Of a stretch of 64,000 nt of DNA, positions 37,017 to 50,168 are shown one piece after another. A program made the translations under genes and the position numbers. Each line of letters starts with the position of its first letter. Position 1 is the first letter of the stretch. The notes beneath the pieces were generated by a model. That model worked only from the letters and a program-made list of their open reading frames with translations. It searched no databases and was not told where the DNA came from. The stretch covers positions 1-64,000 of the forward strand of contig NZ_JABEQN010000020.1 in NCBI RefSeq assembly GCF_014174165.1, in the 5' to 3' direction. The DNA comes from Gluconacetobacter dulcium (GTDB lineage: Bacteria; Pseudomonadota; Alphaproteobacteria; Acetobacterales; Acetobacteraceae).

Positions 37017-39497
37017 TCAGAATTCTGCCGAGAAGGTTGCGGAAACGGCGCGGGGCGAGCCCAGCGTGTAAGTGGGGGTGGAGGCGCCCGGCCCGGACGC
37101 GGCCAGATTGTAGGAATTGGGGTTCACGCCGCCGGTCGGGGTCAGATAGCCTTTGTTGAAGATGTTGGTAACGTTGATCAGGAGTTTCGGCGCGCTCATG
37201 GCGATGCCTTCGGCCAGCGTGACGGTGGGGAAGCGATAGCCTACGGACAGATCGACCGTCGCGTAAGGGGCGGCGGACTGGTCGTTCGTCAGGGTCGTGT
37301 CGCTTCGGCCGACATAGCGCACGCGGAGCGAACCGCTGACCGGCCCGTTGCGGTATGTCATCTGCGCGACGCCGATCCATGGCGGTGTGTTATAGAACTG
37401 CTTGCCTTTCGTAGGCAGATAGACCGTGGTGCCCCCGGAGGGATAGGGAATGTCGGCGGCCATTTTCGCGCTGGTATAGGTGGCCGAACCGTAGAAGCTG
37501 AAACCGCGCCAAGGTGTCGTGCCGATTTCCAGTTCCGCTCCCCGGTTGTGTGTGCCGCCGAGATTGGCGTAGGTCGCGGCGGCCAGGGGATCGAACGGGT
37601 TGGCGAACAGGCCGATGCGGTTGTAAAATTCGATATCGAAGCCGGTCACCTGCATGTTGAACCATTTGTGCTGGAAGCGATATCCCCAGTCCACGCTGAC
37701 GCTGGTCTCGGCGTTGATATCGGGTGCGGCCCCGATCGCGCCGGTCTTCTTGTCCACCAGTTGCTGATCCACGAAATTGGGCGGCAGCCGTTGACCCGTG
37801 CTGATGCTGGCGAAGACCTGGTGGTTGGGCGTTATGAAATAGCGGGCGCCGGCACTGGGCATCATGCGCGTGAAGTCGCGCTCCACAGCATACCATTTAT
37901 AGGATTGAGCCTGGTCGCTGGGCAGGTTCTCGAAGCGACGCGCGTTCTGCTGCCAGCGTGTTCCAAGTGTGACCAGCAGGCGGTCGTGGAAAAAACGCCC
38001 GGTCGCACCAACGGAAAGCTGGTGCGTCGTCATGTCGGTTTTCCAGAGCCGGTTTTGCAGGACCCTGCCGGTGGCGTCCTGAAGCAGGTTGGCGGCGCTG
38101 GAGAACAGGATGTCATCCACCGTACCGTCTTCATTGATGGACTGGAACGGGTTGGATTGATGCTGGAACAGGCGCTCGAACCAGTATCCCCCCTCGATCG
38201 TCACCCGGCCGATATCCTGCTCAAGGCGCAGGAGGTTGCCGATCCGGTCGAAGGCGCTTTGGCTGAAGCTGTTGACGACCACGGCGTCTTTCGTGTCGCC
38301 GTCGCCATTGAGGTCGACGGCGCGGTGCAGGCTGCTCGCCTCCTTCAGCAATGTTTCCGCGGTGCTTCCGCCATATTGGTGATGATAATAGGGCTGAACC
38401 GTCAGGCGGGTGTGCGGCGTGGGCGCGAAATGGCCGGCAAGGGTGATCAGCCAGCGGTCGCCGACGGTATTCATCATGCCGTAATAAGGCAGGTTATGGG
38501 CTGTATAGGGGACAGCGGCCCCGGTGTTGGCATAGACCGCCGTCTGTGCGGTGCCGGCCACCGGCGTGGGATTGAGGCCGAGGAAAGAGTCCAGATCGGT
38601 GCCGTATCCGTTATCGTAGCCATAGGCCCTGTATTGGGCCAGCGTCACATTCCGGTTCTTGCCGCCGTATTTGTAGTCGCGGAATGCCATCAGGTCGATC
38701 GTGTTTCCCGCGCCGAGATCGAGATGCGAGCGCAGATCGCCGTGATATTTCAGGATGCCGCCCTTGTCCTGATTATAGACGCTGGCGGTGGAACGGGAAA
38801 AACTGATGTAGTTCGTCAGGCGCCCGTCCAGCATCGCGCCGGTATTGTAGCGGGCGAAGGTTCTGACCAGGTCGTAGCTGCCGCCGGTCTGCTCGATGAA
38901 CGCCTTGCGTGCCTTCGTCGGTGCACAGGTATGGTAAGCCATCGAGCCGCCGATTTCGCCACGCTGGGGCGAGAGCGGATCGGAGCCCGCCTGGGTGACG
39001 ACAACGTTGCAGTAATTTTCTGAATCGTTGTTGGCCGTCAGCACGAAATCGTAGGTGCTGGCATCGTTCATCGGTACGCCATCGACGGTGAAGCCGATCA
39101 GGTTCCGGTCGAAGCCGCGAATGGAGATCGACCCGCCGTCGAACAGCCCCGTCGGATCGCCTGTCGTTGCGATCACGCCTGGTACCGTCTCGACCAGGGT
39201 CGCGGCGTTGGCCGAGGGGCGCAGCAGATCGAAGGCTTCTTTCGTCACCGTGCTTTGCGCGGTCGTGCCGGTATGGCCGGTCATCAGGCCGCCGCCGACA
39301 GGTTTGCGCGTGGCGCGCACTTCCAGTCTTTCCTCGGCAGACGATGGTCGGAACGCCGCTTTTTCCCGATGTGGCGAAGCACGGAGTGCGGCCTGATCGT
39401 CCGGGGCGGCGATCGCGGATGCGAAGGGGATCGGGGACAGGGCGGTCATGAGCATCAGGCCGCCGCGAATGAGACCGTGCGGATACGATCTGGACAT
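37017..39497 (-). CDS. TonB-dependent receptor heading the phosphoesterase operon
   Basis: About 826 residues. Signal peptide core LMLMTALSPIPFASAIAA, then RLEVRATRKP as a TonB-box-like stretch, plug with GSISIRGFDRNLIGFTVDGVPM, a cysteine pair in NYCNVVVTQ...MAYHTCAP within the plug, and a barrel ending in Phe (SATFSAEF). The ATG at 39497 is preferred; GGGAAA precedes it and the in-frame 39512 codon is TTG. It is the first gene of the operon TonB - DUF1868 phosphoesterase - ROK - MFS. Ligand unknown; company suggests a phosphodiester- or sugar-containing molecule. Confidence 0.9.
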   Translation of the reverse strand: MSRSYPHGLIRGGLMLMTALSPIPFASAIAAPDDQAALRASPHREKAAFRPSSAEERLEVRATRKPVGGGLMTGHTGTTAQSTVTKEAFDLLRPSANAATLVETVPGVIATTGDPTGLFDGGSISIRGFDRNLIGFTVDGVPMNDASTYDFVLTANNDSENYCNVVVTQAGSDPLSPQRGEIGGSMAYHTCAPTKARKAFIEQTGGSYDLVRTFARYNTGAMLDGRLTNYISFSRSTASVYNQDKGGILKYHGDLRSHLDLGAGNTIDLMAFRDYKYGGKNRNVTLAQYRAYGYDNGYGTDLDSFLGLNPTPVAGTAQTAVYANTGAAVPYTAHNLPYYGMMNTVGDRWLITLAGHFAPTPHTRLTVQPYYHHQYGGSTAETLLKEASSLHRAVDLNGDGDTKDAVVVNSFSQSAFDRIGNLLRLEQDIGRVTIEGGYWFERLFQHQSNPFQSINEDGTVDDILFSSAANLLQDATGRVLQNRLWKTDMTTHQLSVGATGRFFHDRLLVTLGTRWQQNARRFENLPSDQAQSYKWYAVERDFTRMMPSAGARYFITPNHQVFASISTGQRLPPNFVDQQLVDKKTGAIGAAPDINAETSVSVDWGYRFQHKWFNMQVTGFDIEFYNRIGLFANPFDPLAAATYANLGGTHNRGAELEIGTTPWRGFSFYGSATYTSAKMAADIPYPSGGTTVYLPTKGKQFYNTPPWIGVAQMTYRNGPVSGSLRVRYVGRSDTTLTNDQSAAPYATVDLSVGYRFPTVTLAEGIAMSAPKLLINVTNIFNKGYLTPTGGVNPNSYNLAASGPGASTPTYTLGSPRAVSATFSAEF

Positions 39498-39782
39498 ATG
39501 AGGATTTCCCAAGGGCGAGAGCGAATGGCTGCTCTATATCGCTCGCCTGTCGGGACTGTCATGTTATAGTTTTGTTGCGGTAGTAAATAAAATTGAGGCG
39601 GAACCGTGGTGCGTTCTGGCCGGTGTCCGGCGTGCCGCTGTCGCAAGACCGCGACAGGTGTTGTGCGGGCCTGTCACGAGGACGTGAGAGCGGGGCGGCA
39701 CGCTCTTTCGTGCGGTATCGGCCTATGGCGATCTGAGGGCAGACAGCCGGCGTCCCGCGCGGCTCAACAGGAGAAGAGTACG

Positions 39783-40562
39783 ATGGCAATCACGGGAAAG
39801 GTCGCGCTGGTTACGGGGGCGGCTCAGGGTATCGGCCGCGGCATTGCCCTGCGTCTGGCACAGGATGGCGCGGACGTGGCGCTGGTCGATCTGAAAGCCG
39901 AGGGTCTGAGCGAAGTGGCGGCGGAAATCGCGGCCCTGGGGCGCAAAGCCACCATTTTCATGGCTGACGTGGGTGACCGGGCGCAGGTGCGGGCGGCGGT
40001 CGATCATGCCGCGCGGGAACTGGGCGGTTTTGACATCATGGTCAATAACGCCGGCATCGCGCAGGTCAAGGCGCTGGCCTCGGTGATGCCGGAGGATGTG
40101 GAGCGCATCTTCCGGATCAATGTCCAGGGTGTGCTGTGGGGGATTCAGGCGGCGGCCGACCGGTTTATCGCCAGCGGGCAGAAGGGCAAGATCATCAACG
40201 CCTGTTCGATCGCGGGGCATGACGGGTTTGCGCTGCTGGGCGTCTATTCGGCGACGAAATTCGCCGTGCGCGGGCTGACCCAGGCGGCGGCGAAGGAATA
40301 TGCCAGCAAGGGCATTACCGTGAACGCCTATTGCCCCGGCGTGGTGGGGACCAGCATGTGGGTCGAGATTGACCAGCTTTTCTCGGAAATCACGGGGGCG
40401 GAGAAAGGGGCGACCTTCCGCAAATATGTCGATGGCATCGCCCTGGGCCGGGCGCAGACGCCCGAAGACGTGGCGGGGCTGGTGTCGTACCTCTCCGGCC
40501 CCGATTCCGATTACATGACGGGGCAGGCGGTCCTGATCGACGGTGGGCTGGTTTATCGCTGA
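39783..40562 (+). CDS. budC: Acetoin/diacetyl reductase (2,3-butanediol dehydrogenase), SDR
   Basis: 259-residue short-chain dehydrogenase of the BudC type: nucleotide motif [15 protein letters not shown], catalytic Ser-Tyr-Lys (CSIAGHDG, then YSATK), and the meso-butanediol dehydrogenase-specific [14 protein letters not shown]...[10 protein letters not shown] and [17 protein letters not shown]. Reduces acetoin (and diacetyl) to 2,3-butanediol with NADH. AGGAGA precedes ATG 39783. It complements alsS at 28.4 kb, though alsD was not seen. It is divergent from the TonB operon across about 285 bases. Confidence 0.92.
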
Positions 40563-40578
40563 TCGCGTCGGGACCGGT

Positions 40579-41247
40579 TCAGGGCTGGCGGGAGAGGATG
40601 GCCTGCCAGGTTTCCTCGGTGGGGCGGCCCATATCGAACATCGCGTCGCGCCGGATCGCGGCGTAATCGCCGGGGCCGCCGGCGCGCAGGATGGGTTGCG
40701 CTCCGGCGGTGTCGTAACGGCCTTCGGCCAGCAGGCTGCGCCGGATATGCACCGCCACCACCTCGCCGAAGACCATCCAGCTTTCGACATCCTCGCCCCC
40801 GGCGGTGCGCAGTTGCAGCATCTGGGTCAGGCGGCATTCGAAATGCACCGGACTGTCCGCCACCCGTGGCGGGCGGACCTGCGTGGAGGGCAGGCGGGCC
40901 AGGCTGGCGAGGTCGAATTCGCTGACATCGGGCGGGACCGCGGCGGAACTCAGATTCATCGAACCGGCCAGGGGCAGGGTAGCGAGGTTCCACACGAATT
41001 CGCCCGTGGCGTGGATATTGGCCACCGTGTCTTTCCAGCCGATGCTGGAAAAGCCGATGATCGGCGGCTGGTAGTTGAAGGCGTTGAAGAAACTGTAGGG
41101 CGCGAGATTGGCCCGGCCCGCCGCGTCGACCGAGGAAATCCAGCCGATCGGGCGTGGCCCCACGATGGCGTTGAACGGGTCGTGCTTCAGGCCGTGGCCG
41201 GTGGCGGGGCGGTAGGAATGGAAGGCGTCGGGCGGATTGGATGACAT
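40579..41247 (-). CDS. Flavin reductase-like (FMN-binding) protein
   Basis: 222 residues of the flavin reductase/DIM6-NTAB fold: FNAIVGPRPIGWISSVDAAG and ANLAPYSFFNAF as the FMN-binding strands, with GFSSIGWKDTVANI typical of the group. ATG 41247 follows GAGG eight bases ahead and conserved sequence begins at once; the longer in-frame extension reaches into the P450 gene and is rejected. It lies 53 bases downstream of the cytochrome P450. A role as flavin-dependent partner is possible but not standard for P450s. Confidence 0.85.
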   Translation of the reverse strand: MSSNPPDAFHSYRPATGHGLKHDPFNAIVGPRPIGWISSVDAAGRANLAPYSFFNAFNYQPPIIGFSSIGWKDTVANIHATGEFVWNLATLPLAGSMNLSSAAVPPDVSEFDLASLARLPSTQVRPPRVADSPVHFECRLTQMLQLRTAGGEDVESWMVFGEVVAVHIRRSLLAEGRYDTAGAQPILRAGGPGDYAAIRRDAMFDMGRPTEETWQAILSRQP

Positions 41248-41300
41248 GGCGGCGTCCTCGATGGAAGCTGTGGGAAGCATCCTGTGGCCGGCGGGTGAGG

Positions 41301-42650
41301 TCAGCGGCGGCGCAGGTGGAAGGCGGGGGCGTGGCTGGGCCGCGTCGAGAGCACCCCGACCGGCAGCACCGGCCGGTGGTCGGCGAGGGTGAGCGCGAAA
41401 TCCTGGAGCAGGCGGGCCAGCACCAGCACGGCCTCGGTCATGGCCAGTTGCGCGCCGATGCAGACATGCGGCCCGGCGCCGAACGGCAGGAAGCTGAAGC
41501 GCGGGGGATCGGGGCGGTCCAGAAAACGCCGGGGGTCGAATTGCGCCGGGGCGTGCCACAGGGCGGGGTTGCGGTGCAGCATCCAGAAGGGCAGCAGCAC
41601 CATCGCGTTGTCGGGCAGGGCGTGGCCGCACAGGTCGGTTTCGCCCACGGTTTCCCGGCCGCTCATGAAGGCGGGCGGATAGAGGCGCAGGGTTTCGCGC
41701 ACCACGGCCGTCGTGACGTGCAGGGAGGGCAGCGAGAAGGCCGCGCCATCCGGCGTCAGGTCCTTGTCCCGCACTTCCTGCGCGATCTCGTTCTGCCATC
41801 GGGGGGACTGGGCCAGCAGCAGGCAGGACCAGAACAGGACCGATGCCGTCGTTTCATGCCCGGCCACGATCATGGTGGCGACTTCGTCGATCAGTTCGGA
41901 CGTGGTGCCGCCGCCCTGGTCGCCGAAGGCCGTCTGCATAAGGTCGAACAGGTCGCGCGGGGCATCGGTGGGGGCCTGCGCGTGGCGCGCGGCGATGATC
42001 TGGCCGATCAATGCCACCCATTGGCGGCGGAAACGCGCGCGGCGCCAGCCCAGCAGGGTCGGCGTGCCGGGTGGCAGCAGGAAATCGGAAGGGCGAGGCG
42101 TGCCGATACCGGTCATGAAGCGGGTGACGGCGTTACGCAAAGGCTGGTCGAACGCGCCGATCTCCAGCGAGAACATGGAAACCGCCGCGACATCCAGCGC
42201 CAGGCGCCGCATGGTCGAGAACAGGTCGATCGGTCCGCTGGTCTCCAGGTTTCGGCAGCCCCGCTCGGCGCAGGCGGCGATATGTCCGGCCAGCACGGGC
42301 ACCGTGCGCGGGGTGAAGGCCGGGGCCATGGCGCGGCGCTGCCGCCGCCACGTATCGCCCTCGCTGACCAGCAGGCCGCGCCCGACGATGGGGCTGAGCA
42401 CGCGCTGGCCGACGCGCATGCGGCGATAATGCCCGGCATCCGATGTCAGGATCGCCTGCATGGATTCGGGGCCGGCGGCCAGCACCAGCGGGCGGCCCAG
42501 CGCGCGCAGGCTGACCACCGGCTGGGTGAAGCAACGCTGTGGAAAGGCCGAATAGCCGTTGCGCCGCAGGGACGTGAGAACGCGCAGGCCCCCGGCATGT
42601 TCCGACAGAAGAGGCGGCATCGGCGGAATGAGAGGGGATGAGTCGAGCAC
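41301..42650 (-). CDS. Cytochrome P450 monooxygenase
   Basis: 449 residues. The heme ligand is Cys397 in FLPFGAGPHVCIGAQLA; the oxygen-binding I-helix reads VAGHETTA, and ETLRLYPP is the ExxR motif. The start is GTG 42650: AAAGG lies about eight bases upstream and the N-terminus is proline-rich without a membrane anchor, as for soluble bacterial P450s. The much longer upstream frame is rejected. No ferredoxin or ferredoxin reductase is adjacent; a flavin reductase follows. Substrate unknown. It is divergent from the PotD-like gene. Confidence 0.92.
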   Translation of the reverse strand: MLDSSPLIPPMPPLLSEHAGGLRVLTSLRRNGYSAFPQRCFTQPVVSLRALGRPLVLAAGPESMQAILTSDAGHYRRMRVGQRVLSPIVGRGLLVSEGDTWRRQRRAMAPAFTPRTVPVLAGHIAACAERGCRNLETSGPIDLFSTMRRLALDVAAVSMFSLEIGAFDQPLRNAVTRFMTGIGTPRPSDFLLPPGTPTLLGWRRARFRRQWVALIGQIIAARHAQAPTDAPRDLFDLMQTAFGDQGGGTTSELIDEVATMIVAGHETTASVLFWSCLLLAQSPRWQNEIAQEVRDKDLTPDGAAFSLPSLHVTTAVVRETLRLYPPAFMSGRETVGETDLCGHALPDNAMVLLPFWMLHRNPALWHAPAQFDPRRFLDRPDPPRFSFLPFGAGPHVCIGAQLAMTEAVLVLARLLQDFALTLADHRPVLPVGVLSTRPSHAPAFHLRRR

Positions 42651-43046
42651 GCGCGGACCTTTGCTGGACGGGACGGCAGCGTAGCCAAACCGGTCGGGGC
42701 GGGAAAGCGGGGGTGGTGTGTGGGAGGGGCGATCGAGGGGGTATAGAGGGGCCATGCGCCGGCGGAGAGAGGAGTCGTTAATCCTCTGTCGCAACAAATT
42801 TCTGTTATGTGCGCCGGGGGGCGTGATAGAAAAACGAAGAGAACCGGCATTGTTTTGCCGGCGCCTGGATCGTCGCCCGTGGAGAGTTGATTGCGAAACC
42901 GAAATGCGCAATAGCACGTCGCCGATCCTTGGCGATGGCGGCGCGTGGTGCCTGTTGCGGGTGTTTTTTCGGTGCTTCGCATGATGGGGCGACGGACATT
43001 CAGGCGACGCGGCTATGGGGACAGGCGCGCCGGACGAGGCGATTTT
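42651..43046. other. Divergent promoter region, P450 and PotD-like genes
   Basis: 396 bases with no recognised gene. An inverted repeat at 42844-42861 (CCGGCA, TTGTTT, TGCCGG) is the only structure seen; it may be an operator. In-frame ATG codons at 42981 and 42984 are alternative starts for the PotD-like gene but lack a ribosome binding site. Confidence 0.5.
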
Positions 43047-44171
43047 GTGACGGATCGGGGTAGCGTGCGAGCCGGTGTGACAGGCCGTTTGAACAGGCGA
43101 TCTGCCGGGCAGGGGGGCGGCCCGCGTTTTCTGGCCGCGATGCTGGGGGTCGGTCTGGCCCTTCTGGCCCTGCGGCCCGTCGTCGCGCAGGCGAATGCCC
43201 TGAATTTCCTTATCTGGGAATGGGGGATCAGCCCCGACGTGGTGCGGGCCTGGACGGCCATGACCGGGGTCGCGGTCAATCAGATCGTCTTCGACAATGG
43301 CGACCGGCGGGACCTGCTGATCGCGAACGTCGATGCGCCGATCGATCTGGCCGTGGTCGATAGTGCCCATGTCCAGGCGTTCGGCGAGCGGGGACTGCTG
43401 CTGGATCAGTCCGGCCTGCCCTTGCCCGAGACGTCGCGCAGCGAGGAGCAGTGGCGTGGCATGTGCGGGCGATACGGCGTGCCGTATAGCTGGGGGAATA
43501 CCGGGATCGTCTATCGCGCCGACCGCCTGAAGGTGGCGCCGCAATCGTGGGGCGACCTGCTGAAGCCGGACCCCGCGCTGGCCGGGCATATCGCCATGAC
43601 CGACGACCAGGAGGAATTGCTGGCCGCCGCCCTGAATTTCATGGGGCGCCCGATGAACAGCGGCGATCCGGGGGATCTGCGGCGGGCCTTCGAACTGCTG
43701 CGCGCGCAGTCGCCCGCCGTGCTGACCTATGGCCTGCCCTCGACGGCGCAGAGGCGGCGCGATATCCGGGGGCGGATCTTTATCGGCCTGGGAGCGACGG
43801 GAGACCAGAAGACCCTGAACATGGCCGGCGCGGGGACGGAGACGTGGCGCTTCGTGACGCCGCGCGAGGGCGCCATGGTGTGGACCGACTGCCTGGTCGT
43901 GCCCAAGCGTACGCGCAATCCGGGCATGGCGGAACGGTTCGTCGCGTTTCTGGCGCAGGCCGACAATGCGGCGGCGAATGCCATGTTCCTGCGCCAGCCG
44001 ACGACCAACCCGCATGCCGCCGCCCTGTTGCCGGCCAGGATGCGCGAGGACCCGCAGATCTACCCGCCCGCGGAGTACCCCATTCTCTATCGCGGGCCTT
44101 TTCCGACCGCCAGCCTGCCGTTGCGCCGGCATATCCTCAGTGCCCTGCTGGCGATTCATGACGCTCAGTAG
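43047..44171 (+). CDS. PotD-like periplasmic polyamine-binding-type protein
   Basis: About 374 residues: signal peptide core FLAAMLGVGLALLALRPVVA, then the ABC solute-binding fold of the PotD/PotF class (LNFLIWEWGISPDVVRAW at the start of the mature protein, YGVPYSWGNTGIVYRADRL as the typical binding-site strand, ending with MVWTDCLVVPKRTRNPGMAERF). No permease or ATPase lies next to it. Instead, its last 14 bases overlap the start of a membrane GGDEF protein, an arrangement like the NspS-MbaA polyamine sensor. GTG 43047 is preferred (GAGG seven bases ahead). The ligand is probably a polyamine or related cation, which is inference. Confidence 0.82.
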   Translation: MTDRGSVRAGVTGRLNRRSAGQGGGPRFLAAMLGVGLALLALRPVVAQANALNFLIWEWGISPDVVRAWTAMTGVAVNQIVFDNGDRRDLLIANVDAPIDLAVVDSAHVQAFGERGLLLDQSGLPLPETSRSEEQWRGMCGRYGVPYSWGNTGIVYRADRLKVAPQSWGDLLKPDPALAGHIAMTDDQEELLAAALNFMGRPMNSGDPGDLRRAFELLRAQSPAVLTYGLPSTAQRRRDIRGRIFIGLGATGDQKTLNMAGAGTETWRFVTPREGAMVWTDCLVVPKRTRNPGMAERFVAFLAQADNAAANAMFLRQPTTNPHAAALLPARMREDPQIYPPAEYPILYRGPFPTASLPLRRHILSALLAIHDAQ

Positions 44172-45795
44172 GCGCGCGCTCGCGGTTCTGTTCCCTATCG
44201 TCCTGCTGGGGCATATCCTGGCGGGCGGGGCGGCGTATCTGGGGTATCGCCATGCGCTGCTCACGCAGAACAGGGCCAGGCTTCAGCAGAATCTGTCGCA
44301 GCTTCAGAATGCCTATTCCGACTATGCGTCGCTGGATTCGCAATTGCTGTATGTGGTGCGCAACAGTCCGGCCTTTCTGACTTTCGTCGATGAAAGCGAT
44401 GCCGAATACCGGACCAGGGTTCTGGCGATCGGTGTGCAGGACAGCCTGCAATCGCTCGTTCCCAATGACGGGGCGAACGTGTCGTGCAGCGTTTTCCAGA
44501 CGGATGGGAAGCAGATCTTCTATTTCGACAATGGCACGGACCCGTTCCAGAAGCTGGGGGCCGGCCAGTCGGCCTTCGCGCAGGCGGTGCTGAACGATGA
44601 TGTGGCTTCGCGTTCGGGACTGGTGACCGAAGGAGACGGCACGACCTATCTGGCGATGGCCGCGAAGGTGCAGGCGCGCACGGGGGGCGTGGGCGTTGCG
44701 GGGCCGCAGCCGGATCAGTCGGTCGTCATGCAGGTGGCGGTGCGGCCCCGCCGGTTCGAGACGATCCGCGACACCATGGCCAGGGAATATGGCGCGCCGG
44801 TCGCGCTGACGGATTTGCCGCCGGTATCGCACGGGGAATTATCCGCCAGTATTCGGCTGGCGCCTGGTCTTTATGCGCAGGAGACGCCGTCCGTCGCCTA
44901 TCTGCGTGGCCCGCTGACGCGCTTTGCCGCCGTGACCGGCCTGTTCGTCATCGTGCTCAGCGTGGTGTCGGTCTCGGTGCTGATGGCGCTGGTGCGCCGC
45001 TATATCATCGCGCCGGTCGAGGAACTTGACCGGCAGGTGACGGCGATTACGGAAAATCGCCGGCAGGATATCGATGTACCCGATATGGGGGAGGTCGGTC
45101 GGCTGGCGGCGAACGTGCGGCTGCTGCATGGCCAGTTGACGCGATCGCTGCGGCAGATCCGGCAGCTTTACGAGACGGATCTGGTGACGGGGATCGGCAA
45201 CCGGATCTATTTCAACGACAAGCTCGACCAGTTCTATCAACTCAGCGCCACGACCGGCCGGCCGCTGACCATGCTGTTCATCGATCTGGACAATTTCAAG
45301 CAGGTCAATGACGTGCATGGGCACCGGACCGGGGATGCGTTGCTGGAGGCGGTAGCGCATGCGCTGAGTGCCGCCGTTCGCGACGCGACCGAGGACGGGG
45401 CCGAGGCGATGGGGATCGTGGCGCGGCTGTCGGGAGACGAATTCACCGCGCTGATCATGGCCGACCCACGGAGTGCTGTGGTCGGGACGCTGATCGACGC
45501 CTTCCTGCTGAAATTTCGCGGTGGTTTTCAGGTCGATGCGGCGTCTTATCCCGTCACCGCCAGCATCGGGGTGGCGGCGGCGCCCGGCGATGCGGATACA
45601 CCGGCGCATCTGCTCTGGTGCGCGGACCATGCGATGTATCACGCCAAGGCGGCCGGCCGGAACACGGTGGCCTTTTATGCCGACCTGCCGCGCGATGAAG
45701 CGGCCGGGGCGGCGCCGGAGCGGGACGTTATGCCGGAAGAGCGCGGACGAGCAATGCGGCCACCGCTTCCACAAGCTGCCGGTCCTGCGGTGTGA
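44158..45795 (+). CDS. Membrane-anchored diguanylate cyclase with periplasmic sensor region
   Basis: About 545 residues: first membrane helix at ~7-27, a periplasmic region of about 230 residues, second helix at ~260-285, a HAMP-like linker (RRYIIAPVEELDRQV), then a GGDEF domain with FIDLDNFKQVNDVHGH and the catalytic motif LSGDEF at ~424-429 (Ser for the first Gly, tolerated in active enzymes). The RxxD inhibitory site expected five residues ahead is not present. It would make c-di-GMP from GTP on the cytoplasmic side in response to the PotD-like protein with which it overlaps. No EAL domain follows, unlike MbaA. The last 23 codons overlap the end of msrC on the other strand. Confidence 0.88.
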   Translation: MTLSRRALAVLFPIVLLGHILAGGAAYLGYRHALLTQNRARLQQNLSQLQNAYSDYASLDSQLLYVVRNSPAFLTFVDESDAEYRTRVLAIGVQDSLQSLVPNDGANVSCSVFQTDGKQIFYFDNGTDPFQKLGAGQSAFAQAVLNDDVASRSGLVTEGDGTTYLAMAAKVQARTGGVGVAGPQPDQSVVMQVAVRPRRFETIRDTMAREYGAPVALTDLPPVSHGELSASIRLAPGLYAQETPSVAYLRGPLTRFAAVTGLFVIVLSVVSVSVLMALVRRYIIAPVEELDRQVTAITENRRQDIDVPDMGEVGRLAANVRLLHGQLTRSLRQIRQLYETDLVTGIGNRIYFNDKLDQFYQLSATTGRPLTMLFIDLDNFKQVNDVHGHRTGDALLEAVAHALSAAVRDATEDGAEAMGIVARLSGDEFTALIMADPRSAVVGTLIDAFLLKFRGGFQVDAASYPVTASIGVAAAPGDADTPAHLLWCADHAMYHAKAAGRNTVAFYADLPRDEAAGAAPERDVMPEERGRAMRPPLPQAAGPAV

Positions 45796-46204
45796 AGCGG
45801 TCGGGGATCGGGCTGTCGATATCCAGGACGCCGATCAGCCGGTCGCCGGCGAGCAGCGGCACCACGATTTCCGAGGCCGAGGCGGCGTCGCAGGCGATAT
45901 GGCCGGGAAAGGCGTGGACGTCCGCCACCACGATGGTCTCGCGGCGGGTTGCGGCGGTGCCGCATACGCCCTTGCCCAGCGGGATGCGGGTGCAGGCGAC
46001 CCGGCCCTGGAACGGCCCGAGGACAAGCTGGTCGTCGCGCAGGAAATAGAAGCCGGCCCAGTTGATGCGGGGCAGGGCCTCGAACAGCAGGGCGGCGACA
46101 TTCGCGGCATTGGCGATCAGGTCGGGTTCGTCGGCCAGGATGGCCGCGACACTGTCCAGCAGGTCGTCCGGCGTGACACGTTGATCGGCAGGCTGGTGGC
46201 TCAT
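45728..46204 (-). CDS. msrC: Free methionine-(R)-sulfoxide reductase, GAF type
   Basis: 158-residue single-GAF-domain enzyme that reduces free Met-R-sulfoxide. The three conserved cysteines are in GRVACTRIP, GVCGTAA and HIACDAASASEIVVPL, a textbook fRMsr pattern, with GFYFLRDDQLVLGPFQG at the pocket. The ATG at 46204 is favoured since GGAG lies seven bases before it; 46210 is two codons earlier. It is convergent with and overlaps the diguanylate cyclase gene by 68 bases. The structured repeat at 46284 lies between it and the SelW-like gene on the same strand. Confidence 0.95.
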   Translation of the reverse strand: MSHQPADQRVTPDDLLDSVAAILADEPDLIANAANVAALLFEALPRINWAGFYFLRDDQLVLGPFQGRVACTRIPLGKGVCGTAATRRETIVVADVHAFPGHIACDAASASEIVVPLLAGDRLIGVLDIDSPIPDRFTPQDRQLVEAVAALLVRALPA

Positions 46205-46283
46205 GGACATGCTCCGGTCGTCGAACGTCCTCTCATACCGCGAAGCGGAACGCAGTGGAATGTGGCGTCATTCTGGTGGAGGG

Positions 46284-46447
46284 AAAGCGTGGCTGGACAT
46301 GTGGGCTGGTGAGCGAGAGTGCCGCGAAGCGGCACGGCCGTCGTGTGTTTCCGAGCACCGAAGCGGAGCGGCCTTGATGGCCGTGAGCATCGGAGCGCAG
46401 GAAACGCGCGTCGGATCGTCGCCAGCGCGCATGTCCAGCCACGCTTT
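46284..46447 (-). repeat. Intergenic structured repeat, full copy with extra hairpin
   Basis: The outer arms AAAGCGTGGCTGGACATG (46284-46301) and CATGTCCAGCCACGCTTT pair almost perfectly. Inside, TGTGTTTCCGAGCACCGAAG and GCGCAGGAAAC, GGATCGTCGCCAGCGCGCAT are shared with the 16.1 kb copy (as reverse complement), and a GTGCCGC/GCGGCAC hairpin replaces its GC stem. About 28 bases with a GGCC hairpin are inserted at the TTCG loop. The minus-strand transcript of selW-msrC carries it in the same sense as the 16.1 kb copy. Confidence 0.8.
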
Positions 46448-46731
46448 TAGCGGTCGGTGTGGCCTAGGGATCTCTCGGGATCAATTCTGTCGCGCACTCT
46501 CTGCTTCAGGTCCTTGGGGCCGGGGAAGCCGCCGTCGCGGGTGCGTTCCCACAGCAGGGTGTCATCCAGCATGATCTCGAAGCGGCCGCCGCTGTCGTCG
46601 GGGATCAGCGCGACCTCGCCCAGTACGGCGCCGAAGGTCGAGAGAAGTTCCTGCGCCATCCAGGCCGCGCGCAGCAGCCAGTTGCAGCGGACGCAATAGC
46701 GGATCGTCAGGCGCGGGGACTGGGTGGGCAT
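46447..46731 (-). CDS. SelT/SelW/SelH-family (Rdx) protein
   Basis: 94 residues with the thioredoxin-like opening IRYCVRCNWLLRAAWMAQELL: the CxxC of the SelW-type redox fold, here with ordinary Cys rather than selenocysteine. FEIMLDDTLLWERTRDGGFP continues the family pattern. Likely a small thiol redox protein of the cytoplasm; partner unknown. It sits directly upstream of the structured repeat, and then msrC, so it may belong with oxidative stress repair. Its stop codon overlaps the repeat's edge. Confidence 0.88.
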   Translation of the reverse strand: MPTQSPRLTIRYCVRCNWLLRAAWMAQELLSTFGAVLGEVALIPDDSGGRFEIMLDDTLLWERTRDGGFPGPKDLKQRVRDRIDPERSLGHTDR

Positions 46732-46825
46732 GGAGCGGTCTTTCCCGAGGCGGTGGTCCGGGGGGAGGGGCGCCCGGCCGGTTCCCGGAAGGAACGCGGC
46801 CTGCCTCGCAAAGGATGCATGGGGG

Positions 46826-46845
46826 CGGGCGGGGCGGCCCGCCCG
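46826..46845 (-). terminator. Strong G/C hairpin behind the HU gene
   Basis: CGGGCGGG, loop GCGG, CCCGCCCG: a perfect 8-bp stem six bases behind the HU stop on the minus strand. No T-run follows in that direction, so it may stabilise the 3' end rather than terminate. Confidence 0.5.
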
Positions 46846-46851
46846 GGCCGA

Positions 46852-47121
46852 TCAGACCGCCTTTTTCAGGTTCGGGCTGGCCTTGAAGCGGACGGTCTTG
46901 CCGGCCTTGACCTTGACCGGCTCGCCGGTGCGGGGGTTGAGAGCCTTGCGGGCCTTTGTCTTGTGCACGCTGAAGGTGCCGAAGGAGGGCAGGGTGAAGC
47001 CGCCTTCCTTGTGCAGCTCGGCCACGATCGCATCGATCAGGTCGTTGGCGGCCTTGCCGGCGGCGACACCCGTGCAGCTAAGAGAATCCTGAAGAACGGC
47101 GGCGATGAAAGCCTTGCTCAT
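46852..47121 (-). CDS. HU-family DNA-binding protein
   Basis: 89-residue HU/IHF-type protein that bends and compacts DNA as a dimer. The DNA-binding arm region is visible as GTFSVHKTKARKALNPRTGEPV and the terminal FKASPNLKKAV is the usual ending. Cys16 (SLSCTG) is unusual in HU but not disruptive. A strong hairpin follows the stop. It is transcribed toward the SelW gene after a gap of 120 bases. Confidence 0.93.
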   Translation of the reverse strand: MSKAFIAAVLQDSLSCTGVAAGKAANDLIDAIVAELHKEGGFTLPSFGTFSVHKTKARKALNPRTGEPVKVKAGKTVRFKASPNLKKAV

Positions 47122-47283
47122 GGAGGAGCGTGTCCCAATAGTTAAAGATGTCGGGACGGTAGCAGCGGGATCGGAAAAATGTCTAATCCGATCGTAACGA
47201 AATATGCCTGAAACGCCGTCTTTTTTTGGCAGGTGTGGACGAAAAGCTGCTTTTGGCAGATTTTCGTCCGGTAAAATGCGCTC

Positions 47284-48051
47284 TTACTGGGCGGTATAGC
47301 CGCCATCGATGACCAGTTCGCTGCCGGTCATGAATTTCGATTCGTCGGAGGCCAGGTAAAGGATGCCGTAGGCGATGTCGTCGGCTTCGCCCAGATGGCC
47401 GACCGGGTGCAGGGCCTCCAGCCGCTTGCGCGCGGCGGCCTGGTCCGGGCTTTCGCCCGTCAGGCCCTGGACCATCGGGGTCCAGATATAGCCGGGATGG
47501 ACCGAATTGACGCGGACCCGGTAGCCGGAGCGGGCGCAATGCAGGGCGGCCGACTTGGTGAACAGACGCACGCCGCCCTTGCTGGCGTTGTAGGCGGCCA
47601 GGGTGGGGTCGCCGATCAGGCCCTCGATCGAGGACAGGTTGATGATCGAACCGCCATGGTCCTTCATGGCGGCGACGGCGGCCTTCGTGCCCAGGAACAC
47701 GCCGTCGAGATTGATCGACTGCACGCGGCGCCAGTCGTCCAGGCTGGTGCTTTCCACCGTGCCGGCATAGGCGATGCCGGCATTGTTGACCGCGATGTCC
47801 AGCCGGCCGAAGCGGGCCAGGACGGCGGCGATGGCCCGCGTCCAGTCCTCTTCGCGGCTGACATCGAGGGGTACGAAGAGGGCTTCGCCGCCCGCTGCCT
47901 CGATTTCGGCGACGACGGCGTGGCCTTCATCGGCCTTCAGGTCGGCGACCGCGACCTTCGCGCCTTCCCTGGCCAGCAGCAGGGCGGTTGCCTTGCCGAT
48001 GCCGAGGGCGGCGCCTGTGACGATCGCGACTTTTCCGGAAACGCGTGCCAT
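47284..48051 (-). CDS. Short-chain dehydrogenase/reductase
   Basis: 255-residue classical SDR: GAALGIGKATALLLAREG nucleotide motif, DLKAD specifying NAD rather than NADP, NNAGIAY, catalytic Ser-Tyr-Lys in LSSIEGL and YNASKGG, and the ending SELVIDGGYTAQ. Wording resembles the glucose 1-dehydrogenase/hydroxysteroid-like and ketoreductase (R-specific alcohol dehydrogenase) branch; substrate cannot be told. It stands alone. Confidence 0.9.
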   Translation of the reverse strand: MARVSGKVAIVTGAALGIGKATALLLAREGAKVAVADLKADEGHAVVAEIEAAGGEALFVPLDVSREEDWTRAIAAVLARFGRLDIAVNNAGIAYAGTVESTSLDDWRRVQSINLDGVFLGTKAAVAAMKDHGGSIINLSSIEGLIGDPTLAAYNASKGGVRLFTKSAALHCARSGYRVRVNSVHPGYIWTPMVQGLTGESPDQAAARKRLEALHPVGHLGEADDIAYGILYLASDESKFMTGSELVIDGGYTAQ

Positions 48052-48335
48052 GACGGTGCTCCATGATCAGAAATGGCGTGCACTATGGTGAGGGCGCTGA
48101 ACGGGATTCCATGATCTGGGTCAAGGCGCGGATGCGGCTCTTTGGCCTTGGCAGGGCCGCGCATGGGGCGGGATGATAGGGCGGCGTATCGGGGTTTGCC
48201 AGGAAATTAGGTGGCGTGCCGCCGACGGTGCGGCGGAAAAGTACATATAAACTTAATAATTCGGGTGGGGGTTCGATTGTAGGGTCGCGCGCCCATCGCC
48301 TGCTGTGGTGGCGCGAGAGAGCGAAAGGATGGCTT

Positions 48336-50168
48336 GTGCGATCGCCCGGCATCAAAGGATCGTTGAGTATTGTTCTGTTTTTTATCGTTCTTTCCTGTAT
48401 CGTTTCGGGACTGTTTTCGATACGGGGGCTGACTTACGTCAACGGGCGGGTCGAGGACATTACCAACCGGTCGCTGGCCAGCATCAAGGCGCTTTCGACC
48501 CTTCGCACCGAGATCCAGAATTTCCGGGGTATCGAGATCCGCCAGCTTACCGTGGCGTCGCAGGGTGATTTCAAGACGCTTGCCGGCGAAAGCGACGCGG
48601 CGTCCGACAGGATCGCCCATGCTATCGACCGGTATGTGCCGTTTATTACGACCGATCGGGAGCAGGCGCTGTTCCATAATATTCAGGAGCAGTGGTATCA
48701 GTACAAAGACCTGCACGACGATACGTTCAAGGACTGGTCGGTTTCCCAGGACCATGCCCATGCGGTGGTGACGGCCAGCCAGGGGCTGGTCGATGCCGAG
48801 GAAACGGTCTCGGAGACCCTGACCTCGTTCCTTGATGGCAGCATCGGGGATGCTGCGTCCTATGGTGTTGAGTCGGAGGCCGCCTACAGGACGACGGTTC
48901 GTTGGGTTTATGCGGCCTATGCCGTGCTGTTCGTCGTGATGCTGGCGGCTATTCTCGTGGTTCTGTACAAGATCCTGCGGCCGCTTCAGCGGATCAATGC
49001 TTCCATTACCCGGCTGGCGGCGGGAGAGACTGATCTGGTCTTTCCCATGGCCGGCCGGCGGGACGAGATCGGCGCGATTTCCCGTTCGCTTGAGGTCTTT
49101 CGTGTTGCGGCCATCGCGAAGCAGGCGCTGGAGCGGGATGCGGAGGGCCAGCGCCGCCGTGCGGAGGCTGAGCGCGTGGCCATTCAGGAGCGGGCGGAAG
49201 CCGAGGCGCGGGAACGGTTGCTTCAGGCGACCAGCGCGTTGGCCGACGGGTTGAGGCGGATGGCGGGCGGCGACCTTTCCTTTCAGATCGCTACGCCGTT
49301 TTCGGCGGAATTCGAATCCCTGCGTCGCGATTTCAACCGGTCGCTGGCGCAGCTTGGCGCGGCGTTCGGCCATATGTCGGGCGCCGTTCGCGTGATCAGC
49401 GACGGCACGCATGGGCTGGCGGGCGGCGCGGAGACGCTGGCACGGCGCACCGAGCACCAGGCTGCCACGCTGGAGGAGACGAATACGGCCGTGGCGGAGA
49501 TTGCCCGGAGCGTGGCGGATACGGCGGAACGCTCGGAGATGGCCCGCGAGATCGGGACGCGGGCCCGCCGGTCGGCCGCGACGTCGAGCACCGTTACGCT
49601 GGAGACGGAAGAGGCGATGCGGCGGATCGAGCAGGGATCGGAGAAGATTGCCGCGATCGTCGACATGATCGACGGGATTGCCTTCCAGACCAATATCCTG
49701 GCGCTGAATGCCAGCGTCGAGGCGGCCAGGGCGGGGGAGGCCGGCAGGGGCTTTACCGTGGTGGCCAGCGAAGTGCGCATGCTGGCGCAGAAAAGCGCCG
49801 ACGCCGCGCGGGATGTGCGCGGCGTGATCCGCGCGACCGCCGCCGACGTGAAGGAAGGGGCCAGCCGGGTCAAGGATTGCAGCGGGACGCTGCGGACGAT
49901 TTCCGATTTCATCGACCAGATGGGGCAGCATCTGGATGCCATCGCCGTAGCGGCGAAGGAGCAGTCATCGAGCCTGTCGGAAATCAACGCCGCCATGGGG
50001 GCGCTGGACCAGACAACCCAGCAGAATACGGCCGTTGCCGAGACATTCAACGGAACCTCCCGGCAGTTGGCCGCCGAAGGGCGCAGGCTCAGCGGGCTGG
50101 TGGAAAAATTCCGGCTGCCGGGGGGAAGGGAGAATGCGTCTCGGGTGATCGCGATAAGCGGGGGCTAG
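48336..50168 (+). CDS. Methyl-accepting chemotaxis protein
   Basis: About 610 residues: first membrane helix at ~10-30, a four-helix-bundle type periplasmic sensor, a second helix at ~190-212 (AAYAVLFVVMLAAILVVLY), HAMP domain (LYKILRPLQRINASITRLAAG), a long coiled segment rich in Glu/Arg/Ala, and the signalling domain with the conserved hairpin tip VVASEVRMLAQKSADAAR. No C-terminal CheR-tethering pentapeptide. GTG 48336 is chosen because AAAGGA precedes it and the earlier starts add an unlikely stretch. No che genes are nearby, so it serves a distant chemotaxis cluster. Ligand unknown. Confidence 0.92.
   Translation: MRSPGIKGSLSIVLFFIVLSCIVSGLFSIRGLTYVNGRVEDITNRSLASIKALSTLRTEIQNFRGIEIRQLTVASQGDFKTLAGESDAASDRIAHAIDRYVPFITTDREQALFHNIQEQWYQYKDLHDDTFKDWSVSQDHAHAVVTASQGLVDAEETVSETLTSFLDGSIGDAASYGVESEAAYRTTVRWVYAAYAVLFVVMLAAILVVLYKILRPLQRINASITRLAAGETDLVFPMAGRRDEIGAISRSLEVFRVAAIAKQALERDAEGQRRRAEAERVAIQERAEAEARERLLQATSALADGLRRMAGGDLSFQIATPFSAEFESLRRDFNRSLAQLGAAFGHMSGAVRVISDGTHGLAGGAETLARRTEHQAATLEETNTAVAEIARSVADTAERSEMAREIGTRARRSAATSSTVTLETEEAMRRIEQGSEKIAAIVDMIDGIAFQTNILALNASVEAARAGEAGRGFTVVASEVRMLAQKSADAARDVRGVIRATAADVKEGASRVKDCSGTLRTISDFIDQMGQHLDAIAVAAKEQSSSLSEINAAMGALDQTTQQNTAVAETFNGTSRQLAAEGRRLSGLVEKFRLPGGRENASRVIAISGG

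What the first reader, a model, noticed from the sequence alone, without database searches (positions are those of the whole stretch)
43047..45795. PotD-like sensor overlapping a GGDEF protein: possible polyamine-responsive c-di-GMP module
A solute-binding protein of the PotD class with no transporter partners overlaps by 14 bases the gene for a two-helix membrane diguanylate cyclase with a large periplasmic region. NspS-MbaA in Vibrio uses the same logic but with a GGDEF-EAL partner. A GGDEF-only version in an acetic acid bacterium would raise rather than lower c-di-GMP on ligand loss or binding, and could tie polyamines to cellulose production, which c-di-GMP controls in this group.
Basis: partly seen in the sequence, partly recalled or inferred. 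Interest (0 to 1): 0.72.

Follow-up and report, generated by a model that had tools for sequence, protein, structure and literature searches.

The report
Polyamine-type sensor with one-way cyclase
An acetic acid bacterium carries a known kind of two-protein outside-chemical sensor (NspS-MbaA, which reads polyamines in cholera bacteria and rhizobia), but its enzyme half has lost the part that destroys the signal molecule, so it should only be able to make it.

Summary
In detail: a PotD-fold binding protein (43047-44171) overlaps by 14 nt a two-helix membrane GGDEF protein (44158-45795). The pair is homologous to NspS-MbaA: 38% and 35% identity to the Sinorhizobium meliloti pair, adjacency and overlap conserved, and Arg88, Cys140 and Cys282 in 29 of 29 paired binding proteins but 0 of 27 unpaired PotD relatives. 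It is in 12 of 14 Gluconacetobacter genomes; in 347 sampled Acetobacteraceae the only full-length matches are of this genus. A 2023 paper already lists G. diazotrophicus as a carrier. What I did not find in print: the partner lacks the EAL phosphodiesterase domain in 12 of 12 Gluconacetobacter genomes, while 22 of 22 relatives outside the genus have it; no remnant or split-off EAL gene was found. The acidic pocket positions are kept, but the aromatic Tyr233 of NspS is lost in 12 of 12. This genome has no second PotD-family match, no PotA over cut-off and no cellulose synthase over cut-off, so the cellulose link is unsupported. Best reading: a ligand-gated cyclase that can only raise c-di-GMP. 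Ligand and activity are inferred.

The parts
43047..44171 (+). NspS-type periplasmic binding protein (PotD fold), 374 aa with N-terminal leader; start codon uncertain (in-frame starts up to 42945)
43464..43466 (+). Cys140 codon, one of two cysteines invariant in the paired (sensor) binding proteins, absent in the unpaired PotD relatives compared
   Evidence: 29 of 29 paired, 0 of 27 unpaired
43890..43892 (+). Cys282 codon, second invariant cysteine; a disulfide with Cys140 is inferred, not measured
43794..43796 (+). Ala250 codon at the place of NspS Tyr233 (pocket aromatic); Ala/Gly/Asn in 12 of 12 genus rows, Tyr or Phe in the other 17 paired rows
   Evidence: NspS numbering from PMC9993111, mapped through Vibrio-like loci L129 and L130
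44158..44171 (+). 14-nt overlap of the two genes (stop codon counted), conserved in the genus and in Stutzerimonas; translational coupling inferred
44158..45795 (+). MbaA-type membrane diguanylate cyclase without EAL domain, 545 aa
44179..44241 (+). first transmembrane segment (about residues 8-28)
   Evidence: read from the sequence and helix 3-68 of the model; boundaries approximate, no membrane predictor was run
44242..44919 (+). periplasmic alpha/beta sensor region (about residues 29-254), homologous to that of S. meliloti MbaA, no Pfam family over cut-off
   Evidence: 29% identity over residues 1-297, E 2.8e-38
44920..44994 (+). second transmembrane segment (about residues 255-279)
   Evidence: read from the sequence and helix 246-298 of the model; approximate
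44995..45174 (+). HAMP-like linker (Pfam HAMP below cut-off)
45175..45663 (+). GGDEF domain
45430..45444 (+). active-site motif SGDEF, as in MbaA; no RxxD inhibition site read in front of it
45664..45792 (+). short C-terminal tail, low model confidence, where relatives continue into an EAL domain
   Evidence: pLDDT under 50 for residues 514-545

Best explanation
This is an NspS-MbaA-type sensor pair whose enzyme has lost its phosphodiesterase half. The binding protein samples a small cationic ligand in the periplasm, most likely a polyamine or polyamine derivative. In its closed, liganded form it docks on the periplasmic domain of the membrane partner; the signal passes through the second transmembrane helix and HAMP-like linker to the GGDEF domain, which then makes c-di-GMP. 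With no EAL domain the system can only raise c-di-GMP or fall silent; removal is left to other enzymes. The genome's lack of a recognised Pot importer would leave the sensor exposed to unbuffered periplasmic ligand. Shown here: homology, conserved adjacency and overlap, EAL loss across the genus members tested, kept GGDEF motif and acidic pocket residues, purifying selection. Inferred: ligand, docking, cyclase activity and sign of the response (by analogy with the V. cholerae system). The 0.6 is for the mechanism; homology to the family alone I would put near 0.97.
For: P0001 is 38% identical over 338 aligned columns to S. meliloti NspS and P0002 35% over 512 to S. meliloti MbaA, periplasmic region included. 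Of 72,556 plasmid records six match P0001 at E <= 1e-30: five Sinorhizobium, one Shinella. On the unrooted tree of 56 binding proteins (54 different) the 27 unpaired PotD relatives are one side of a 100/100 branch, the 29 paired ones the other. Arg88, Cys140 and Cys282: 29 of 29 paired, 0 of 27 unpaired. Pocket: W57, D105, D253, W279, D281 in 12 of 12 genus rows, D86 as Asp in 9 and Glu in 3. EAL-less closed frames in 12 of 12 genus members; EAL motif in 22 of 22 relatives outside the genus. No EAL remnant beside the gene, and the 10 EAL matches in the genome all lie in frames that also match GGDEF. No second PotD-family match, no PotA over cut-off (the cut-off is reached in 5 of 14 control genomes). 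dN/dS (NG86) 0.14-0.25 for both genes against four relatives. V. cholerae MbaA with a dead EVL site still raised c-di-GMP on norspermidine, though less than wild type (PMC8079147, passages).
Against: The residue matching NspS Tyr233 is Ala/Gly/Asn in 12 of 12 genus rows and the one matching Phe131 is Ser or Ile; positions 60 and 317, Tyr in 27 of 27 PotD relatives, are Gly or Asp and Gln: polyamine binding may be weakened or changed. In PMC8079147 (passages) both catalytic motifs of MbaA were needed for the normal response, and the purified cytoplasmic part showed only phosphodiesterase activity. For S. meliloti the authors explain their phenotypes by phosphodiesterase activity of MbaA (PMC9993111, section 23). 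Cyclase activity of SGDEF here is untested. The PotD relatives also have two cysteines (26 of 27 rows), at other places. Two genus genomes have a second, weak PotD-model match (G152, G158). Pot permeases and non-ABC uptake were not searched.
Confidence: 0.6

Rival explanations
1. Same two-protein device, but re-tuned to a ligand that is not a simple polyamine (for instance agmatine, a basic amino acid or a polyamine conjugate), because the aromatic cage was lost while the acidic residues stayed.
For: Tyr233-equivalent lost in 12 of 12 genus rows while D105, D253, D281 are kept in 12 of 12; Tyr at positions 60 and 317 of the PotD relatives also lost; the genus forms one side of a branch supported 100/100, of length 1.42.
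Against: Both tryptophans and all acidic positions of the polyamine site remain; the first 30 solved folds listed are polyamine-receptor family proteins; S. meliloti NspS, at 38% identity, is linked to polyamines by genetics (PMC9993111).
Confidence: 0.25
2. The GGDEF domain works in the opposite sense: the empty binding protein (or none) leaves the cyclase on, and ligand binding turns it off.
For: No phosphodiesterase is left to set a low ground state, so the sign cannot be read from the domains; [quoted passage not shown]
Against: In V. cholerae the NspS-free state is mostly phosphodiesterase (about 75% by that model's fit) and norspermidine raises c-di-GMP (PMC8079147, PMC8967002, passages).
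Confidence: 0.1
3. A decaying remnant: loss of EAL is part of pseudogenisation and the pair has no present function.
For: EAL domain lost; two genus genomes (G159, 87% complete; G160, one contig) lack the binding protein.
Against: 12 of 12 pairs keep open frames and the [S/A]GDEF motif, dN/dS 0.14-0.25 by NG86 against four relatives, synteny in five named species.
Confidence: 0.03
4. An ordinary polyamine ABC-transporter binding protein that merely lies next to a cyclase gene.
For: PotD fold and family match.
Against: No PotA over cut-off, pair conserved with overlap from Gluconacetobacter to Stutzerimonas, tree and signature residues place it with sensors.
Confidence: 0.02

Closest known systems
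NspS-MbaA of Sinorhizobium meliloti (smc00991-smc00992; PMC9993111)
   Same: Both proteins homologous over their shared length (38% and 35%, with the copies on L169); adjacent overlapping genes; SGDEF motif; two membrane helices around a periplasmic domain (paper).
   Different: S. meliloti MbaA has a C-terminal EAL domain (790 aa in L169); overlap is 4 nt in L169 (3 bp in the paper); the Tyr233-type aromatic is present there (read from the sequence) and lost here.
NspS-MbaA of Vibrio cholerae (PMC8079147, PMC8967002, passages read)
   Same: Same logic: PotD-like periplasmic protein gating a membrane GGDEF enzyme with SGDEF; six of eight predicted ligand-contact positions kept in the window protein.
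   Different: V. cholerae MbaA is bifunctional (SGDEF and EVL) and works beside a PotABCD1 importer; here no EAL and no PotA over cut-off. V. cholerae sequences themselves were not fetched by name.
NspS-MbaA pairs of Stutzerimonas/Pseudomonas (L046-L052)
   Same: Identical 14-nt overlap in 7 of 7; 39-44% (binding protein) and 36-37% (enzyme) identity; PMC9993111 says that G. diazotrophicus groups with the Pseudomonas clades.
   Different: GGDEF-EAL, frames of 785-801 codons stop to stop.
ArtI-STM1987 of Salmonella (arginine; seen as passages in review PMC8846402)
   Same: A periplasmic binding protein needed for the ligand response of a membrane diguanylate cyclase.
   Different: Arginine as ligand, dCACHE_1 periplasmic domain; that ArtI also serves a transporter is recalled. 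No sequence comparison made here.
PotD/PotF polyamine receptors of ABC importers
   Same: Fold and core pocket residues.
   Different: The 27 unpaired relatives compared lack Arg88, Cys140, Cys282 and an acidic residue at position 105.

Membership tests
NspS-MbaA polyamine sensor family | PotD-like periplasmic binding protein gene directly upstream of, and usually overlapping, the membrane enzyme gene | tested here: met
   14-nt overlap; 12 of 12 genus loci
NspS-MbaA polyamine sensor family | Binding protein groups with paired sensors rather than with unpaired PotD relatives | tested here: met
   56-row tree, branch 100/100 (the tool warns of long branches among some rows); 38% to S. meliloti NspS
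NspS-MbaA polyamine sensor family | Periplasmic domain of the enzyme homologous to MbaA's | tested here: met
   29% identity over residues 1-297 to S. meliloti MbaA, E 2.8e-38 with the database size set to 1e7
NspS-MbaA polyamine sensor family | SGDEF-type GGDEF domain without RxxD inhibition site | tested here: met
   VARLSGDEF; RxxD absence read from the sequence. A sister group in the genus has AGDEF (L003, L038, L039)
NspS-MbaA polyamine sensor family | C-terminal EAL phosphodiesterase domain in MbaA | tested here: not met
   no EAL in frame, in the flanks or split off. A homologous pair, but not an MbaA in the bifunctional sense
NspS-MbaA polyamine sensor family | Ligand-contact residues W41, D70, D90, F131, Y233, D236, W261, D263 | tested here: inconclusive
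   6 of 8 kept in the window protein (F131 and Y233 changed), mapped by alignment and spacing through L129 and L130
NspS-MbaA polyamine sensor family | Binds polyamines and changes c-di-GMP | not testable with these tools
   needs binding and c-di-GMP assays
PotD of a PotABCD importer | Partner ABC ATPase PotA in the genome | tested here: not met
   PotA TIGR01187 best 258.4 bits against cut-off 355.6 (over cut-off in 5 of 14 control genomes)
PotD of a PotABCD importer | Partner permeases PotB and PotC | not tested
   no permease search was run; none among the five neighbours searched

The most novel reading that the evidence does not exclude
In Gluconacetobacter the family was turned from a two-way polyamine rheostat into a one-way, high-sensitivity alarm: EAL lost, importer absent, and the pocket opened by removing aromatic walls so that it reads a bulkier plant-derived polyamine conjugate (such as a phenolamide) instead of free norspermidine or spermidine, tying endophytic life to c-di-GMP.
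Probability: 0.1. Interest if true: 0.72.

Novelty: new variant of a known kind. Interest (0 to 1): 0.45.

Why it matters
In the best-studied member of this family one protein is thought both to make and to destroy c-di-GMP, and the authors of PMC8079147 ask what that arrangement is good for. A natural version without the destroying half, shared by a genus that includes a plant-associated nitrogen fixer, lets that be tested outside engineered mutants: does the cyclase half alone give a ligand-graded response, and what sets the ground state? It also shows that the ligand pocket changed in the same lineage. The polyamine to c-di-GMP link in endophytes would be directly testable.

Tried and rejected
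Cellulose output: rejected for this genome (best 23.8 bits against a 699-bit cut-off, which 1 of 14 control genomes reaches; other exopolysaccharides not searched). Split-off EAL gene: none found; the 10 EAL matches (identity 26-36%) all lie in frames that also match GGDEF. EAL remnant downstream: none above noise (best E 0.14 over 11 sequences, 0.25 in the window and not beside the pair). Rfam elements at 38000-50000: none. A wider range inside Acetobacteraceae: 13 of 347 genomes matched the N-terminal model, 10 of them genus members over full length and 3 only weak linker matches. Class samples at E <= 1e-10: 1 of 385 and 1 of 369, each only the centre genome itself. Phylum sample: 36 of 398 matched, 12 of them (this genome included) over most of the 334 positions; the other 24 are short linker matches that I dropped. 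In some searches at most five or six candidates a genome were scored, so a miss is not proof of absence. Structure searches of the enzyme gave GGDEF matches; the fold of the periplasmic domain is untested. The Cys140-Cys282 distance could not be measured, as model coordinates were not at hand. Rows left out of the EAL count: L055 and L057 (no binding protein found beside them), L056 (binding-protein frame broken, 447 nt away), L053, L054, L058 (distant pairs, all with an EAL-type motif). L170 and L171, which are in the count, were checked only for a frame with SGDEF and an EAL motif. Rows left out of the binding-protein table: L045 (upstream frame in pieces), L056, L132-L135 (no binding protein found), L040-L044 (same contigs as loci already in), L169-L171 (fetched later). 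The 27 unpaired rows are the loci L004-L030 that one search returned, the best-scoring part of its matches; the others were not fetched, and absence of a cyclase beside the 27 was checked only within about 1.5 kb. Print search for an EAL-less MbaA: plus sections 17 and 23 of PMC9993111 read in full and passages of PMC8079147, PMC8967002, PMC8846402, PMC10385936, PMC10552763; supplements, figures and papers outside the held library were not seen.
Full report
Observation. The binding-protein gene ends at 44171 and the GGDEF gene starts at 44158, a 14-nt overlap with the stop codon counted. The first product is a PotD-family binding protein (SBP_bac_8; best solved relatives PotD, PotF, VcPotD1 by sequence and by fold; model pLDDT 89). 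The second has two membrane helices around an alpha/beta periplasmic region, a HAMP-like linker and a GGDEF domain with the motif SGDEF. None of the five neighbouring genes searched is a transporter.

Host. Relatives of the enzyme at 80-86% identity over its whole length are in five named Gluconacetobacter species. Within the genus 12 of 14 genomes hold the binding protein, and in all 12 the cyclase gene lies next to it with the same overlap. Contig lengths identify five of these genomes as G. asukensis, aggeris, takamatsuzukensis, sacchari and tumulicola. The 3,944,163-base contig of G154 fits my recollection of the G. diazotrophicus PAl 5 chromosome. In 347 sampled Acetobacteraceae the cyclase's N-terminal region is matched over full length only in 10 genus members.

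What it is. P0001 is 38% identical to S. meliloti NspS over 338 columns and P0002 is 35% identical to S. meliloti MbaA over 512, the periplasmic region included. The S. meliloti genes are those of L169, from strain Ak57 and not the strain of the paper; I identified them by order, size and annotation. Against 72,556 plasmid records P0001 finds only Sinorhizobium (five) and Shinella (one) at E <= 1e-30. In an unrooted tree of 29 paired and 27 unpaired relatives, the unpaired ones, from Acetobacteraceae, are one side of a 100/100 branch (the tool warns of long branches among some rows). Arg88, Cys140 and Cys282 are in 29 of 29 paired proteins and 0 of 27 unpaired. In 25 of the 29 these are the only two cysteines after the first 40 residues; 26 of the 27 unpaired rows also have two, elsewhere. 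A disulfide is likely but was not measured.

What is different. The Gluconacetobacter enzyme stops shortly after GGDEF. Closed frames in 12 of 12 genus genomes lack an EAL motif (L125, L154-L162, L043, L044; frames of 525-645 codons stop to stop). The 22 relatives outside the genus (L045-L052, L124, L126-L135; L169-L171) have an E-x-L-type motif of the EAL domain in frames of 776-903 codons (L171's 903 is stop to stop). No remnant follows the gene, and the genome shows no standalone EAL gene among the matches. The loss is therefore old in the genus. Both genes are under purifying selection (NG86 dN/dS 0.14-0.25 against four relatives; the YN00 method failed in two of twelve comparisons and gave 0.07-0.12 in the rest).

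Pocket. NspS contact residues W41, D70, D90, F131, Y233, D236, W261, D263 are given in PMC9993111 (section 17). Two Vibrio-like proteins, L129 and L130, carry all eight at exactly the NspS spacing, which anchors the mapping; L128 and L131, also tried, do not keep that spacing. In the window protein these are W57, D86, D105, S148, A250, D253, W279, D281. The four acidic positions and two tryptophans are kept in the genus (D86 is Glu in 3 of 12). Tyr233 is Ala, Gly or Asn in 12 of 12, against Tyr or Phe in 17 of 17 other paired proteins and Trp, Tyr or Phe in 27 of 27 unpaired. A cationic ligand remains likely; its identity does not follow.

Importer and cellulose. P0001 is the only PotD-family match in the genome (two other genus members, G152 and G158, have a second weak one). 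No PotA reaches the cut-off (best 258.4 of 355.6 bits), and no cellulose synthase reaches its cut-off (23.8 of 699 bits). In a V. cholerae strain without the importer and without its own norspermidine synthesis, sub-nanomolar norspermidine was detected (PMC8967002, passages), so a genome without a Pot importer may run the sensor in that regime (inference). G. diazotrophicus encodes SpeD and SpeE for spermidine (PMC10385936, passages), so self-made spermidine is a candidate input.

Mechanism. By the V. cholerae model, closed liganded NspS binds MbaA and favours cyclase activity; free MbaA is mostly a phosphodiesterase (PMC8079147, PMC8967002, passages). A V. cholerae MbaA with a dead EVL site still raised c-di-GMP on norspermidine, though less than wild type, and hardly responded to spermidine (PMC8079147, passages). 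The Gluconacetobacter enzyme resembles that mutant by nature. I therefore expect a one-way ligand-gated cyclase. Translational coupling through the overlap is inferred.

Literature. PMC9993111 already lists G. diazotrophicus PA1 5 among NspS-MbaA carriers, grouped with Pseudomonas, with a 13-bp overlap (my count is 14). I found no mention of the missing EAL in its sections 17 and 23, nor a paper on it in the listings. A binding-protein-dependent membrane cyclase is also not unprecedented (ArtI-STM1987, PMC8846402, passages).

Verdict. A real, conserved system; a new variant of a known kind; moderate interest. That the genus carries such a pair is already in print; the EAL loss, the pocket change and the missing importer are the additions.

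Noticed in passing
L132, L133, L134, L135 (upstream 1.5 kb): Vibrio-like MbaA-type GGDEF-EAL genes lie about 0.3 kb behind what looks like pheA (name recalled, not searched) with no binding-protein frame between: an MbaA without its adjacent sensor. Whether nspS lies elsewhere was not tested.
   Followed up: partly
L128:2742-3818: A paired binding protein ends about 240 nt before its MbaA-type gene, unlike the usual overlap.
   Followed up: no
G159 and G160 (genus members): Two genus genomes lack the binding protein; G160 is a single contig of about 4.8 Mb, so this looks like real absence there, while G159 is 87% complete.
   Followed up: no
window 41301-42551: Cytochrome P450 gene diverges from the pair and is found beside it in four of five named species, but not in G. 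sacchari (L043), so the pair does not depend on it.
   Followed up: partly
whole genome G000: 21 separate frames match GGDEF (22 matches) and 10 of them also EAL; every EAL match found sits in a frame that also matches GGDEF.
   Followed up: yes
window 48216-50168: Methyl-accepting chemotaxis protein with 4HB sensor and HAMP, 2.4 kb downstream, syntenic in five of five named species.
   Followed up: no
window 45728-46210: A GAF-domain gene on the opposite strand overlaps the 3' end of the cyclase gene by 68 nt.
   Followed up: no
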